A stretch of 64,000 nt of DNA from positions 2,852,001 through 2,916,000 of the forward strand of contig CP013614.1 of NCBI GenBank assembly GCA_001465115.1, read 5' to 3'. This DNA comes from Enterococcus silesiacus. GTDB lineage: Bacteria; Bacillota; Bacilli; Lactobacillales; Enterococcaceae. Under the pieces are notes generated by a model. It saw only the letters and a list, made by a program, of their open reading frames with translations. It ran no database searches and was not told the origin of the DNA. A program made the translations under genes and the position numbers. Shown one piece after another: positions 56,165 to 60,606 of the stretch; position 1 is the stretch's first letter; each line of letters begins with the position of its first letter.

Positions 56165-56610
56165 TATGACTCCTCCTTTCAATTTAAAAGCTAAACGAGC
56201 TTATGAAGCTAGATTGCAATAAACGATACACTATTTTCATGTGTATCATACAGTGTATCGTTTTAAAAGTACATTAATTAACCTTTTATTAGAATGTTTC
56301 ACATGGAACAAGTTTATCGATACCATAAAGTTTGGTTGTTTCCACGAAAGTTAGTTACATACGAATATTTTTGATTTACTAACTTCAAAAAAAGAAATAA
56401 TAGTTGTGTTTATCTAAAATGATGAAAGCGCTTGATTTATTATTTTTTAAATAGTAACATATATATTGTATTATATATCATATATCAAACAAAAGGAGGT
56501 TTTTGTTGTATGCCGTCGAGTTAAATATTCGATGAGGATCATAAACAGTTTTAGGTACTAACTTTAGTTAATATTTATGGATTTAAAAATGAGAAAACAG
56601 GAGGTTCATT
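56165..56610. promoter_or_regulatory. intergenic region between manR and the peptide gene
   Basis: Contains an inverted repeat at about 56224-56265 (ACGATACACT ... AGTGTATCGT with a middle ATGTGTATCAT), so three TGTATC units upstream of manR. On the plus strand a TTGATT/TAACAT pair (56432, 56455, 17-base spacer) could be a promoter of the peptide gene. An AAAGGAGG at about 56490 is followed by only tiny frames. Confidence 0.5.
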
Positions 56611-56874
56611 ATGGAATTATTAAGCGCTAGTTTTTACGAAGGATTATTATTTAAAATCCTTACTATTAGTCAGGTCTTTTGGGGAAATCTAATTAAAAAA
56701 TTAGATAAAAATTCAAATAGTTCGCAAGATCAATATAATGCAGGTATTTGGATTGTAGTTATTGTTGGTGTTGTGATTATTGCAGCATTTATGGCTGCAT
56801 GTGCAGTATTCAAAATGAAGTTTACAGGTGAGTTTTCATTTATAGGTTTTGCATTTAAAATTAAATGTGGATAA
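56611..56874 (+). CDS. small hydrophobic two-cysteine peptide, putative precursor
   Basis: An 87-residue peptide with excellent AGGAGG ribosome binding site. Residues 1-30 are amphipathic and aromatic; 31-44 a polar Asn/Ser/Asp/Gln linker; 45-66 very hydrophobic (IWIVVIVGVVIIAAFMAACAV); 67-87 Phe/Lys-rich, ending KIKCG. Cys64 and Cys86 are the only cysteines. No double-Gly leader end and no YGNGV motif. Its place before an ABC transporter, M50 peptidase and thioredoxin-like gene suggests a secreted or processed peptide (bacteriocin or signal), but this is inference. Confidence 0.65.
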   Translation: MELLSASFYEGLLFKILTISQVFWGNLIKKLDKNSNSSQDQYNAGIWIVVIVGVVIIAAFMAACAVFKMKFTGEFSFIGFAFKIKCG

Positions 56875-57082
56875 ATAGCAAAGTACATTTTTATTTAAGC
56901 ATGCTTGTTTCTATAACACAGAGACAGTAAGAAGGACACGAAAAAAGTGAATTTTTGTGTAATATCAACTTATTGTATCTATTATGCTTACAACAATTTT
57001 ACTTTATTCTGAAGGTTCAATTTTCGAGACCATCTAAACGATACATCATTTCTAGTTAATCACGCCGTTTAATCAAATTTCA

Positions 57083-57268
57083 AGTGACTGGGGCTAGGTC
57101 ATAATTCCTCGATTTATATCTCAGCTCAGTAAAATCCAAATAGACAGTGGTAAAAAAGCAGACTATGCTCCTCCAGTTCGATCTCATCAAACTCTAAGTG
57201 TCAAAGACACTTAGAGTTGAAGGACTTGTTTCTCGGAGCTAAATGCTTTTGTCCCAACCTCAGTCACA
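57083..57268. repeat. 186-bp inverted-repeat element (MITE-like)
   Basis: Ends GTGACTGGGGCTAGG at 57083 and, in inverse, CCCAACCTCAGTCAC to 57267, imperfect terminal repeats of about 19 bp; an internal perfect hairpin AACTCTAAGTGTC / GACACTTAGAGTT lies at about 57194-57223. No coding frame. Resembles the non-coding GGGAC-type palindromic elements scattered in enterococcal genomes. It lies between the peptide gene and the ABC genes. Confidence 0.6.
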
Positions 57269-57292
57269 TCTTATACTTAAGGGGTACAAAAA

Positions 57293-58057
57293 ATGATTAC
57301 ATTCTACTTAGAAAATAAAAAATATCAAAATAATTTTGAAATTAAAAATATATCATTAGAGATTCATCAAGGAAAATGCACTGCATTAATTGGACACAAT
57401 GGTTCTGGCAAAACAACTATCCTAAACAGCTTATTAGGGCACTTGCAGTATAAAGGGGTTTTAGAGGTAGATGACAGGATCCTACATATTCAAGAGAAAA
57501 ATTCTGATTTTGATTGCTTAAAATCTAAAATAGCATATATATCTGATGAAGCTTTGTTATTTGATTTTTTGACTATTGATGAATACTTCAACTTAATACA
57601 AAAAAATTCATTTAACAAAATTGATATCCAATATATCGAGCTTCTAATTGATATTTTCAAAATTCAAAAATACCGAAACACATTAATTGAAGATTTATCT
57701 TTCGGGACCAAGAAAAAAGTTCAAATTATTGCTCAACTGGCGAAGAAAACAAACTATATAGTTTTTGATGAACCTACAAATGGACTAGATCCAGACATGA
57801 TTATCATCTTAAAAAAACTGATCCATAAGCTGCTAGCAGAAAATATTGGGGTGCTAATTTCTACTCATCAATTAAAATTTTGTGAAGATTTGTCTGATGA
57901 AATTGTGATTATCCAAAATGGAGAGTGTATTTTAAATGATACAACATCTTCTATATACGAGATGTATGATACACATGATTTAGAAGAAATATATACCTCA
58001 TTAAACTCAGATTTATATGAAAAAGTGGGTGAATACATTGAAACTATTCAATACTAA
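57293..58057 (+). CDS. ABC transporter ATP-binding protein
   Basis: A 254-residue ATPase. Walker A GHNGSGKTT (34-42), signature LSFGTKKKV (a degenerate LSGGQ), Walker B YIVFDEPTNGLDPD and the H-loop STHQ are present. Type of CcmA/bacteriocin-export or immunity ABC proteins. AAGGGG precedes the ATG. Overlaps the permease gene, so the two are coupled. Confidence 0.92.
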   Translation: MITFYLENKKYQNNFEIKNISLEIHQGKCTALIGHNGSGKTTILNSLLGHLQYKGVLEVDDRILHIQEKNSDFDCLKSKIAYISDEALLFDFLTIDEYFNLIQKNSFNKIDIQYIELLIDIFKIQKYRNTLIEDLSFGTKKKVQIIAQLAKKTNYIVFDEPTNGLDPDMIIILKKLIHKLLAENIGVLISTHQLKFCEDLSDEIVIIQNGECILNDTTSSIYEMYDTHDLEEIYTSLNSDLYEKVGEYIETIQY

Positions 58058-59438
58058 TTCATTAGAAAATTTACATATCATTGAATTTAAACTAAATCTA
58101 AAAAAGATTATTAAATACAATTTCAATAAATTCATTTTAGGTATTCTTCTTTTTAGCTTAATTTATTGTGCTTATTCTATAATTACAGTTAGTAGTTTAT
58201 ATAATATGAAAGATAATTTTAATTCCACTAATTCTTTGCAGCTATTAAAGAATATATCCTATGCTTACTTTGGTATCTCAAATATTCTGGTTTTTTTTAT
58301 TACTCTATTAAATAGAAAAAATCTTAAAAATCGTTCTCTTACTCAGTTTTATTGGACCTCAAATGTTGATAGCTTTACTATCTTAAAATATGCGGAACAG
58401 CCCCAGCTTAGGATGTTTCTTTCTTTAATGTTACTCTTTATTTTGCCTAATGTTTTCGCAGTTTACCTAATTGGAATACCTCTCCTTGAAACTGTTCTCT
58501 TTCTACTCACTTCTATCTTTATCAGTTTTACCTGTTACAAGCTCTGGCTAGCCTTGAGAATGATTGGATATACCATTTTAAAGTCTGAACTATGGACTTT
58601 CTCGTTTAACCTCATTCTTTTAATTGGCTTCTTTTTAATTATAAACAAACTATTTAATATGCAACTTTTTTTTATCTTTTTTACTTTTATCGCTTTATTT
58701 TTGATTGCTTCTTACACCACCAAAAAATTTTCTTATAGATATGTAATGCTTAATGCTACTACTTTTCCAATTAAAAATAGAAAAAATAAAAGCATTCAGT
58801 TCTCAACTAACCAAATTAGTCGTTATATCCAATTTGAATACTGTCGGTTACTACGAAATGGAGTATTATTGGACTATTTAATCGTATTACTTATTTTGTT
58901 AATAAGTTTGGTTTGCATTCATCTTTTTGTACAAAATGATTTGAAATTTCTTGTGGAAAATTTACTAGTTTCATTTGGATTATTAGACATTTGTATTTTA
59001 TTCCCTATTTCCTATGCTTTGTTTTTCAAGAAAAACAAATTTATTCTAGGAGATTCTTATTTTATTTTCTCACTATCAACCACAATTAATTTAGTTGTCT
59101 ATTCGATAATTGGGCTTATCAGTTTGGGAATTCTACAGCTACCTAATATAATATTTACTTCGACCATACTTACAAAAGACTTTCATATACTATTCAAAAT
59201 CATCTTCTATATATTATCTGCTCTGTTATTTTCCTTATTTATATCTGATGTACTCACAAAAGAAACCTCTCTTTTTCTGTTGTCTACTTTCATTATCTTT
59301 TTTGTTGAATTAATTCTGAGCCAAATTGCCCTGAAATTCATGCTAAATTTGAGCATAGTCTACATTGTATCAAGTAGCTTATTTTTTATTTTTATTTCAA
59401 AAACAAAACTATTTACTCATCGGTCACATTATGATTAA
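58017..59438 (+). CDS. ABC transporter permease, putative
   Basis: About 470 residues, with some 12 hydrophobic helices in two six-helix halves separated by a basic loop (about 235-255). Start uncertain: ATG 58017 gives the longest form and overlaps the ATPase gene by 41 bases without a ribosome binding site; TTG 58038, behind GTGGGTG, is an alternative. Very AT-rich (many Ile, Leu, Phe, Asn). The 3' end overlaps the M50 gene by 8 bases. Confidence 0.8.
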   Translation: MKKWVNTLKLFNTNSLENLHIIEFKLNLKKIIKYNFNKFILGILLFSLIYCAYSIITVSSLYNMKDNFNSTNSLQLLKNISYAYFGISNILVFFITLLNRKNLKNRSLTQFYWTSNVDSFTILKYAEQPQLRMFLSLMLLFILPNVFAVYLIGIPLLETVLFLLTSIFISFTCYKLWLALRMIGYTILKSELWTFSFNLILLIGFFLIINKLFNMQLFFIFFTFIALFLIASYTTKKFSYRYVMLNATTFPIKNRKNKSIQFSTNQISRYIQFEYCRLLRNGVLLDYLIVLLILLISLVCIHLFVQNDLKFLVENLLVSFGLLDICILFPISYALFFKKNKFILGDSYFIFSLSTTINLVVYSIIGLISLGILQLPNIIFTSTILTKDFHILFKIIFYILSALLFSLFISDVLTKETSLFLLSTFIIFFVELILSQIALKFMLNLSIVYIVSSSLFFIFISKTKLFTHRSHYD

Positions 59439-59793
59439 TCTAATATTAGCAATGTTGACAACCTTATTTCTACATGAACTAGGACATATTCTATTGGTTA
59501 TTTATTGTAACGTTCGATCTAACAGGCACTTACTAAATTTTAAAATTCATTTTTCTTTAAAAGAGATTGTAATCGTTCACAAGCAATACCAGAAAAGTCT
59601 ATATAATTTATTGGTAGCACTAGCTGGTTTATTTTGCCCGCTTCTCTTTTCTCTTATTTTGTATTTTCTATATAAAAAAAATGACTTTGTTGATTTGCTT
59701 TGTATATGCTCTTTTTTTAACTTAGTAAATTTATCTCCTGCCTTTCCCGATGGTAAAAATATACTACATATAATTGGAGGAATTAAATCTTGA
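59431..59793 (+). CDS. M50-type (site-2-like) membrane metallopeptidase
   Basis: A 120-residue membrane protein with HELGH (residues 15-19) in the first helix, the zinc site of M50 proteases, and a second-ligand region FFNLVNLSPAFPDGKNIL, which matches the family's N-P-DG motif. Three or four helices; short for the family. In yyd-type and skf-type peptide loci M50 proteins process the peptide or its leader. Starts in the stop codon region of the permease (ATGATTAA) with no ribosome binding site of its own. Confidence 0.8.
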   Translation: MINLILAMLTTLFLHELGHILLVIYCNVRSNRHLLNFKIHFSLKEIVIVHKQYQKSLYNLLVALAGLFCPLLFSLILYFLYKKNDFVDLLCICSFFNLVNLSPAFPDGKNILHIIGGIKS

Positions 59794-60074
59794 AAACTAT
59801 TGTACGACTTATTACAAATATTCTTATTTTTAATCTAATCTATATTTTAGCTGCTTTTATTACACCACTGATTTTAATGCTTTTAGGACAAAAAAACTTT
59901 AATTTCACTCCACAGCTTTTTGGTCAAGCTCTTGTAAAAATTATGATTCAAAAGAATAATTTTTCATCTGAAGCAACATTAATGGGTATTGTTTGTACTA
60001 GTATTTTTGCCTCTTTCATTTTTTGCATTTCTTTATTGTTAACTAATCATACTACTAAAGAGAAACTTATATGA
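59790..60074 (+). CDS. small membrane protein of the peptide cassette
   Basis: A 94-residue protein with two long helices (IFNLIYILAAFITPLILMLL and LMGIVCTSIFASFIFCISLLL) and a central Gln/Asn/Lys-rich loop facing one side. TTG 59790 lies nine bases after TTGGAGG; overlap of 4 bases with M50 gene and 4 bases with the next gene. No known family; immunity protein or transporter accessory are possible. Confidence 0.75.
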   Translation: MKTIVRLITNILIFNLIYILAAFITPLILMLLGQKNFNFTPQLFGQALVKIMIQKNNFSSEATLMGIVCTSIFASFIFCISLLLTNHTTKEKLI

Positions 60075-60514
60075 ATCGCAGAAAGTATTTTCTCATACTG
60101 CTGGTCATCATTTTGATCATAATAGGTTGTAAAAGTGAGCGATCTCAGAACATTACAAAAGAACAAAGCACTGCCTACGAACATGCAATAGCAACATTCA
60201 GAAAAATCAAACCGACTGAAGCCAATGATTTACTAAAAAAAAATTCCACGGCTTATCTGTATTTTGGCAGAGCTACTTGTCCTGAGTGCCGAACCTTTGC
60301 TCCAAAACTAAGGAAAATTTCCGAAAAAAAACAACAAGTAATCTATTATATTGATACTGAGAAAACAGAAGAAAATAGTTCTATCAAAAAACTAAGAGAT
60401 GAGCTCAATATAGAATTTGTTCCAACGCTTATTTCCTTAAAACACTCTACAAATAACTACTTTTTATATGACGATAAAAAAATGAGCTTAACAGAATTTT
60501 TTGAAAAAAAGTGA
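60071..60514 (+). CDS. thioredoxin-like lipoprotein (bacteriocin-accessory type)
   Basis: A 147-residue lipoprotein: signal segment and lipobox IIGC (Cys20), then a thioredoxin fold with LYFGRATCPECRTFAPKLRKI (CPEC, residues 70-73) and FVPTLIS with cis-Pro. It resembles the accessory thioredoxins of bacteriocin operons (PedC/BrcD-like), which help form disulfide bonds in the peptide. The two cysteines of the cassette's small peptide make that role plausible. Last gene of the cassette. Confidence 0.82.
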   Translation: MNRRKYFLILLVIILIIIGCKSERSQNITKEQSTAYEHAIATFRKIKPTEANDLLKKNSTAYLYFGRATCPECRTFAPKLRKISEKKQQVIYYIDTEKTEENSSIKKLRDELNIEFVPTLISLKHSTNNYFLYDDKKMSLTEFFEKK

Positions 60515-60606
60515 GTTGCTTTATCATAATTTAGTTAACTTGACTTTATTCAGCTCAATTTTATTCGCTTCATTAGAACTTGTTTTCTGAAAAAGTCTGA
60601 AATTCC

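What the first reader, a model, noticed from the sequence alone, without database searches (positions are those of the whole stretch)
56611..60514. Undescribed-looking peptide cassette with ABC transporter, M50 peptidase and thioredoxin-like lipoprotein
Six tightly packed, very AT-rich genes lie between two ordinary loci: small two-cysteine hydrophobic peptide, ABC ATPase, permease, HELGH membrane peptidase, small membrane protein, CPEC lipoprotein. Overlaps of 4 to 41 bases link five of them. This combines parts of yydFGHIJ-type loci (peptide, M50, ABC) with the thioredoxin accessory of bacteriocin loci, and no radical SAM or LanM-type enzyme is present. Base composition differs from the flanks, which suggests transfer.
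Basis: partly seen in the sequence, partly recalled or inferred. Interest (0 to 1): 0.85.

Follow-up and report, generated by a model that had tools for sequence, protein, structure and literature searches.

The report
Two-cysteine peptide cassette with own protease
This bacterium carries an inserted block of six genes, with relatives in at least four other groups of Bacillota, that encodes a small two-cysteine hydrophobic peptide beside a predicted membrane protease, a predicted transporter and, in some hosts only, a thioredoxin-like protein; together they likely make an undescribed secreted peptide, probably one that would inhibit neighbouring bacteria.

Summary
The six genes are real. Five overlap; the peptide gene lies 418 bp upstream. 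The block (about 56311-60583) is a 4.3-kb insertion: in 12 of 21 other same-genus genomes the flanks lie 31-47 bp apart, and 4 more divergent ones also lack it. I inspected 21 related loci in Enterococcus, another Lactobacillales family, Lachnotalea, Caenibacillus and an unnamed Bacillus-like genus. All 22 loci hold a peptide with one hydrophobic helix and two conserved cysteines 22-28 residues apart near the C-terminus, an ABC ATPase, a permease, an M50-type protease and a small membrane protein. A motif scan saw no radical SAM signature in any. A thioredoxin-type gene is optional (6 of 22, one weakly supported). It does not follow the ATPase tree; in 7 genomes tested it is present exactly where the host lacks DsbB/BdbC, as I expected, but this is confounded with host lineage. 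One relative fuses the small membrane protein to the thioredoxin. Best reading: a peptide toxin or signal, cut by M50, folded with a disulfide, exported or tolerated through the ABC transporter; bacteriocin-like activity is inferred. It works like epeXEPAB without the epimerase and meets the definition of no family tested. New variant of a known kind.

The parts
56311..60583 (.). Inserted block; borders approximate (12 relatives join the sequence matching about 56310 to that matching about 60584 through 31-47 bp of other sequence)
   Evidence: BLASTN of upstream flanks of the ABC-F gene in 21 other same-genus genomes
56611..56874 (+). Precursor peptide, 87 aa: N-terminal segment, hydrophobic helix (about 40-66), Cys64, predicted beta-hairpin 71-76/81-86, Cys86
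   Evidence: ORF; homology to other cassette peptides; two invariant Cys in 9 of 9 aligned; AF2 model, mean pLDDT 69
56875..57292 (.). 418-bp non-coding gap with a perfect 13-bp inverted repeat (57190-57202 / 57206-57218); no terminator-like site scored
57293..58057 (+). ABC transporter ATPase
   Evidence: PF00005 E 7e-23; 40% identical to the ATPase of L083
58017..59438 (+). Predicted ABC permease, about 10 hydrophobic segments, no Pfam/NCBIfam match; alternative TTG start 58038
   Evidence: counterpart in L083, 24% identity by global alignment
59431..59793 (+). Small M50-type predicted membrane metalloprotease, 120 aa, HELGH and NLSPAFPDGKN, without the PqqD-like domain of some relatives
   Evidence: PF02163 E 5e-4, below cut-off; 37.5% identical to the L083 protein, E 2e-27
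59790..60074 (+). Small membrane protein, two predicted helices; immunity or folding partner (inferred)
   Evidence: 45% over 55 aa to the L083 protein, E 4e-14; hydropathy
60071..60514 (+). Lipoprotein-type thioredoxin, CPEC, PedC/BrcD-like
   Evidence: TIGR01295 E 6e-13, below cut-off; PDB 1zma 'bacterocin transport accessory protein' E 1e-8

Best explanation
The cassette likely makes, matures and secretes a small peptide, probably bacteriocin-like, in which a membrane helix is followed by a predicted beta-hairpin whose two conserved cysteines would be joined by a disulfide. Shown: an inserted block; a five-gene core (peptide, ABC ATPase, permease, M50-type protease, small membrane protein) in 22 of 22 loci inspected; two cysteines at fixed places in every peptide; a thioredoxin-type gene that comes and goes with the host lineage. 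Inferred: the M50 protease cuts the precursor at or inside the membrane and frees the C-terminal part; in other members a PqqD-like domain on the protease would hold the leader; the thioredoxin, tethered outside by its lipoprotein anchor, would make or correct the disulfide in hosts that lack the DsbB/BdbC oxidase, while Bacillus-like hosts use their own; the ABC transporter exports the peptide or clears it from the producer's membrane; the small membrane protein, fused to the thioredoxin in E. lactis, would give immunity or chaperone the peptide. Target killing is the least certain step; a secreted signal is the main alternative.
For: Discovery of the E. lactis cassette through ABC and M50, with a homologous peptide between them; no peptide beside the 28 other loci returned with the ABC matches or the 13 weak M50-search loci (these loci are only 2.4-3.7 kb). 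Five-gene core in 22 of 22 loci. Cys pair 22 apart in the window and 23-28 apart in 21 of 21 others, last Cys within 3 residues of the C-terminus. HExxH plus DG in the M50 proteins. The thioredoxins of the window, E. lactis and G133 are PedC/BrcD-like, the window's also by PDB, and in E. lactis it is fused to the membrane protein. DsbB absent in G000, G027, G035, G429 (thioredoxin in the cassette) and present in G430, G569, G744 (none): 7 of 7. Thioredoxin loci are not one clade on the ATPase tree, AU p 1e-57; at least 3 changes on supported branches. Helix plus hairpin in both AF2 models. In the epipeptide system an M50 protease and an ABC pair serve maturation and immunity (passages of PMC10885120; PMC7026026; PMC12871923), and PedC raises pediocin potency (abstract of PMC4919988).
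Against: No expression, product or activity data. The AF2 models are of moderate confidence (mean pLDDT 73 and 69, pTM 0.43 and 0.42) and the output does not report a disulfide. The DsbB contrast is confounded with lineage: two supported independent pairs, which cannot reach significance; other oxidases were not searched. 20 of the 21 relatives were found through the peptide or its profile, so the peptide's presence there is by construction. Shared ancestry of every part is not shown: the permeases of the window and E. lactis types do not match; the permeases and small membrane proteins of L134-L136 were assigned by place and size; and an ordinary ABC ATPase (G054) used as outgroup falls inside the ATPase tree beside the second Lachnotalea locus (95/96). 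The L077 thioredoxin-type protein has only a sub-threshold Redoxin match (E 2e-4). The 418-bp gap after the peptide gene could mean that the window's peptide is not co-expressed.
Confidence: 0.6

Rival explanations
1. The peptide is a secreted signal: M50 frees a pheromone-like fragment that is exported and sensed by a neighbouring regulator, with no killing.
For: The E. lactis cassette sits beside an Rgg-type regulator (PF21259 E 5e-11); Lachnotalea has an AgrB-like ORF downstream, by eye.
Against: No regulator is adjacent in the window's block. The conserved C-terminal hairpin and cysteine pair are larger than usual Rgg pheromones (recalled). A transporter pair and small membrane protein are kept in 22 of 22 loci.
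Confidence: 0.2
2. An internal membrane device: the peptide stays in the producer's membrane as the substrate of site-2-type proteolysis that reports envelope stress, and the ABC transporter is an ordinary detoxifier.
For: M50 proteases are known in regulated intramembrane proteolysis (recalled); the peptide has one hydrophobic helix.
Against: No sigma, anti-sigma or regulator domain among the Pfam hits of the peptides; patchy distribution (3 of 388 phylum genomes; empty sites); predicted extracytoplasmic thioredoxin in part of the loci.
Confidence: 0.1
3. A decayed or silent cassette: the window's copy is a remnant of an active type and its peptide is no longer made.
For: 418-bp gap between peptide and ABC gene; M50 without PqqD-like domain.
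Against: All six ORFs are open; AGGAGG before the peptide start; M50 motifs intact; the L083 type has the same short M50 and was seen in four genomes of another genus (L083, L138, L141, L143).
Confidence: 0.1
4. The thioredoxin acts on another target (M50, permease or general envelope proteins) and its link with the DsbB-less hosts is only shared ancestry.
For: Only two supported independent pairs; the thioredoxins are diverse and most pairs do not align by BLASTP.
Against: Fusion to the small membrane protein in E. lactis; two invariant cysteines in the peptides; PedC/BrcD resemblance.
Confidence: 0.25

Closest known systems
Epipeptide locus epeXEPAB (yydFGHIJ) of Bacillus subtilis
   Same: Small precursor, M50-type membrane protease, ABC ATPase and permease in one locus; EpeP is thought to process and EpeAB gives immunity (passages of PMC7026026, PMC7614699, PMC12871923, PMC10885120).
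   Different: No radical SAM epimerase seen; peptide has two cysteines and a predicted hairpin instead of a 17-residue linear product; extra small membrane protein; optional thioredoxin.
Pediocin-type class IIa loci with PedC/BrcD
   Same: Thioredoxin-like accessory protein beside a cysteine-pair peptide (TIGR01295 E 6e-13; PDB 1zma E 1e-8).
   Different: No YGNGV box; the ABC protein has no C39 peptidase domain; a separate M50-type protease takes the maturation place; the helix precedes the hairpin.
Daptide clusters (NF041824 intramembrane metalloprotease)
   Same: The PqqD-M50 protease of the G569 locus a (L081) resembles the daptide protease (E 6e-8).
   Different: Below cut-off (32 against 300 bits); no daptide enzymes noticed by eye in the ORF lists.
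Lactococcin 972 / mediterrocin
   Same: Peptide plus ABC protein; weak E 0.1 match of the E. lactis peptide.
   Different: Mediterrocin has a Sec signal and a DUF1430 protein (section of PMC12345188); no DUF1430 match here.

Membership tests
Epipeptide (epeXEPAB) | Radical SAM epimerase in the locus | tested here: not met
   No CX3CX2C motif in ORFs of 150 aa or more in 22 of 22 stretches, including all 64 kb of the window; a motif scan, not a family model
Epipeptide (epeXEPAB) | M50-type membrane protease next to the peptide | tested here: met
   HExxH and DG motifs; in L068 the gene is spread over two frames. Direct homology to EpeP not tested
Epipeptide (epeXEPAB) | Short linear D-amino-acid product | not testable with these tools
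   Needs mass spectrometry; the peptides have two conserved cysteines
Class IIa (pediocin-like) bacteriocins | YGNGV-type motif in the peptide | tested here: not met
   Absent from the peptide sequences by eye; no Pfam or NCBIfam bacteriocin hit above cut-off
Class IIa (pediocin-like) bacteriocins | ABC exporter with C39 peptidase | tested here: not met
   The window's ATPase is a 254-aa ATPase-only protein (25 of its 31 Pfam matches shown, no C39 among them) and its permease has no Pfam hit
PedC/BrcD thioredoxins (TIGR01295) | Score over the curated cut-off | tested here: not met
   48.9 bits against a cut-off of 120; works like, not filed as
Lactococcin 972 / mediterrocin | Family model over cut-off and DUF1430 protein | tested here: not met
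   E 0.1, 12.7 bits against 40 for the E. lactis peptide; permease without Pfam hit
Daptides | NF041824 protease over cut-off with daptide enzymes | tested here: not met
   32.3 bits against 300 for the L081 protease; the other daptide enzymes were not searched with their own models
M50 peptidase (PF02163) | HExxH plus C-terminal DG motif in a membrane protein | tested here: met
   HELGH at the end of the first hydrophobic segment and PDG in the window protein; Pfam score below cut-off, motifs conserved in relatives

The most novel reading that the evidence does not exclude
A new, Bacillota-wide family of helix-hairpin disulfide peptides with its own intramembrane protease: an epipeptide-like toxin system in which a disulfide replaces the radical SAM modification, and which picks up a private thioredoxin only when it enters a host without the DsbB/BdbC oxidase.
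Probability: 0.5. Interest if true: 0.75.

Novelty: new variant of a known kind. Interest (0 to 1): 0.62.

Why it matters
If right, a peptide family found in enterococci (entries named E. faecium and E. hirae, and E. lactis), Lachnotalea and bacilli has gone unnamed in the family libraries searched, because its peptide is short and variable. It would show that M50 proteases serve peptide maturation without a radical SAM partner, and would turn the question of how disulfide peptides fold in hosts without DsbB into a simple gene-swap test between natural thioredoxin-plus and thioredoxin-minus cassettes.

Tried and rejected
Window permease as a probe: no relative in 104 other family genomes, plasmids or 5.8 billion proteins (only a 100% identical 410-aa entry; 7996 candidates sharing most words were scored); the one order-level hit (G250, E 4e-4) shows no other cassette gene (L010). 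Window peptide as a probe: only itself. ABC matches in G053, G054 and G055 are ordinary ABC pairs beside galactose genes; they and six further stretches (L059-L064) show no cassette peptide, M50 or permease by profile. Plasmids: no match with the E. lactis peptide or permease. Viral contigs: 55 pattern matches, none a relative. Mediterrocin was considered and rejected. Fold search of the Lachnotalea peptide model: nothing at E below 0.001. PHROGs gave only sub-significant matches, PADLOC only generic ATPase matches; PDB sequence searches gave nothing convincing for the peptide (best E 0.003, a viral fusion protein, taken as chance) and nothing for the PqqD-M50 profile. Repeat origin of the 418-bp gap: one 67-bp, 76% match, in L050, among the loci held. 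Weak peptide-profile hits in 458-aa frames (G029, G031) and 212-230-aa frames (G118, G131, G138) have no cassette genes in the 3.1-kb loci (in L130-L132 only the peptide profile's own weak match) and were taken as chance. Profile comparison of the two permease groups: no match. Nine paper searches listed nothing that by title or abstract describes this cassette; six papers were opened (PMC12345188, PMC7026026, PMC10885120, PMC7614699, PMC4919988, PMC12871923), in passages, one section or abstract only, none in full.
Full report
What is in the window. The window lies in a 3.93-Mb single-contig genome, unnamed, Enterococcaceae-like by my inference. The last five overlap by 41 (or 20), 8, 4 and 4 bases. 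The peptide gene stands 418 bp upstream of the ABC gene; that gap holds a 13-bp perfect inverted repeat, no terminator-like site was scored in the region and there is no Rfam match. Pfam and NCBIfam name the ATPase (generic ABC), hint at M50 below cut-off, give the lipoprotein a thioredoxin fold with the PedC/BrcD model as best NCBIfam hit below cut-off, find nothing for the permease, and for the peptide and the small membrane protein only sub-threshold matches taken as chance.

It is an insertion. The ABC-F gene downstream is 92-100% identical in 22 of 22 same-genus genomes, the window's own included. Upstream of it, in 12 of the 21 others the sequence matching about window position 56310 is followed, after 31-47 bp, by the sequence matching about 60584; 4 more divergent genomes (L125-L128) also have the regulator next to the ABC-F gene without the cassette, with gaps of about 100-145 bp; in 5 (L111, L115, L116, L120, L124) other genes lie upstream, and in L115 the contig ends there. 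GC is 28.4% against 36.7% for the window. The window permease has no relative in 104 other family genomes.

Relatives. The peptide alone finds only itself. Outside the window's own genome, the best ABC match in the order sample (395 genomes) and the best M50 match lie side by side in G027. The stretch (L055; contig of the same length as, and peptide identical to, Enterococcus lactis CCM 8412, L066) shows an Rgg-type regulator, M50 with a PqqD-like N-terminal domain (PF05402 E 2e-5, just above cut-off), a 70-aa peptide, ABC ATPase, permease, and a membrane protein fused to a CPDC thioredoxin. Its peptide matches the window's (E 1e-6), as does the thioredoxin part (E 8e-13); its permease does not. 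A control: none of the other 28 loci returned with the ABC matches, nor the 13 weak M50-search loci, shows a cassette peptide (short loci). A profile of the two peptides found nine other entries among 5.8 billion proteins, two of them truncated; two bear species names, E. faecium and E. hirae. A scan of GTDB genomes gave Lachnotalea glycerini (L067) and Caenibacillus caldisaponilyticus (L068). Profile searches then gave G035 (4 of 15 genomes of the genus of G027 matched, G029 and G031 taken as chance), a second Lachnotalea locus, G569 and G744 (3 of 388 genomes of the phylum sample, G429 included), 25 of 44 genomes of the genus of G569, and G133 in another family of the order (5 of 227 matched: own, G133, and three taken as chance). 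The genus of G569 is unnamed; genome sizes and a pgk-tpi-pgm-eno neighbourhood look like Bacillus (my inference).

Core and options. I inspected 22 loci, the window included. All hold peptide, ABC ATPase, permease, M50-type protease and a small membrane protein; in L055 the membrane protein is part of the fusion, in L068 the protease is spread over two frames, and in L134-L136 permease and membrane protein were assigned by place and size because no profile matched. The small protein has two hydrophobic segments in 21 of 22 (three in the E. lactis piece). Of the 41 places listed I fetched 15; all 15 hold the five genes. Gene order differs between groups. A thioredoxin-type gene is present in 6 of 22: window, L055, L067 (PF13462 E 2e-9), L076, L134, and L077, where support is weak (Redoxin E 2e-4 below cut-off, CATC). 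In the others no thioredoxin was seen: a CxxC scan of ORFs of 80 aa or more in 15 stretches showed ORFs that do not look like thioredoxins and cysteines inside cassette membrane proteins, and L135 was read by its ORF list. The nearest relatives of the window's set are the L083-type loci: peptide 40% over 57 aa (E 8e-9), ATPase 40%, M50 37.5% (E 2e-27), membrane protein 45% over 55 aa (E 4e-14); in the ATPase tree the window joins four such loci with 100/99 support. The permeases of the window type and of the E. lactis type do not match by profile, and an ordinary ABC ATPase taken as outgroup falls inside the tree beside the second Lachnotalea locus (95/96), so a single origin of all parts is not shown; the peptide is the best link between the groups.

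The peptide. The 9 peptides compared in detail have one strongly hydrophobic segment (best 19-residue mean 2.4-3.2), a cysteine at or just after its end and a cysteine near the C-terminus; in the 21 other loci the last two cysteines are 23-28 residues apart and the last is 1-3 residues from the end; in the window they are 22 apart and 1 from the end. Some peptides have a third cysteine. AF2 models of the Lachnotalea and window peptides show a helix and then a two-stranded hairpin that ends at the last cysteine, with moderate confidence; the first has no PDB match.

A prediction tested. Before I expected that the thioredoxin stands in for the host's oxidase (reasoned beforehand, not noted in the notebook). 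DsbB (PF02600, which rings in B. subtilis among the controls) was absent from G000, G027, G035 and G429, whose cassettes carry a thioredoxin, and present in G430, G569 and G744, whose cassettes do not: 7 of 7. The thioredoxin loci are not one clade (AU p 1e-57; long branches are in play) and need at least three changes on supported branches: window against the L083 type, and G133 against L135/L136, are well-supported sister contrasts. Independent pairs with known DsbB state number only two on supported branches, both in the expected direction. So the correlation is suggestive, not significant, and it is confounded with host lineage.

Mechanism. A peptide with a leader, a membrane helix and a disulfide-ready hairpin; a protease of a family that in the epipeptide system is thought to mature the product (passages of PMC10885120, PMC7026026, PMC7614699, PMC12871923) and that in several members carries a PqqD-like domain, known elsewhere as a leader-binding domain (recalled); an ABC pair; a small membrane protein that one relative fuses to the thioredoxin; and a thioredoxin of the type that raises the potency of pediocin (abstract of PMC4919988). 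The simplest joint reading is maturation, folding and export of, and self-protection from, a secreted antibacterial peptide. Cleavage site, disulfide, export direction and activity are all inferred.

Known or new. Tested features exclude membership in epipeptides, class IIa bacteriocins, lactococcin 972/mediterrocin and daptides as defined here. No model above cut-off in Pfam or NCBIfam, and no significant match in PHROGs or PADLOC, names the peptide, permease or small membrane protein among those scanned, and nine paper searches listed nothing that describes the cassette by title or abstract; subscription papers are not held, so an earlier description cannot be excluded.

Noticed in passing
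window 56875-57292: 418-bp gap between peptide and ABC gene with a perfect 13-bp inverted repeat and a stretch ending TTTTGTCCCAACCTC; a 67-bp piece matches a same-genus genome (L050) at 76%. Possibly an interspersed intergenic element.
   Followed up: partly
upstream of the ABC-F gene in L111, L115, L116, L120, L124: The same chromosomal site carries other genes in five relatives, four of them repeat-rich proteins (by eye), so it may be a variable site.
   Followed up: partly
L067 12858-17343: The Lachnotalea cassette continues with a DsbA-like protein, a thioredoxin joined to a weakly CcdA/DsbD-like membrane domain, and farther on an AgrB-like ORF (by eye).
   Followed up: partly
L055 5005-5904: Rgg-type regulator next to the E. 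lactis cassette; suggests peptide-controlled expression there. None is adjacent in the window's block.
   Followed up: no
L068 12704-13409: The two parts of the Caenibacillus protease lie in two reading frames; sequencing error or a broken gene.
   Followed up: no
P0006: A cassette-type peptide with a source name from Enterococcus hirae stands for 222 contigs, so the system may be common there.
   Followed up: no
genus of G569: Many genomes of that genus give two peptide hits of different type, and two (G857, G858) give three.
   Followed up: partly
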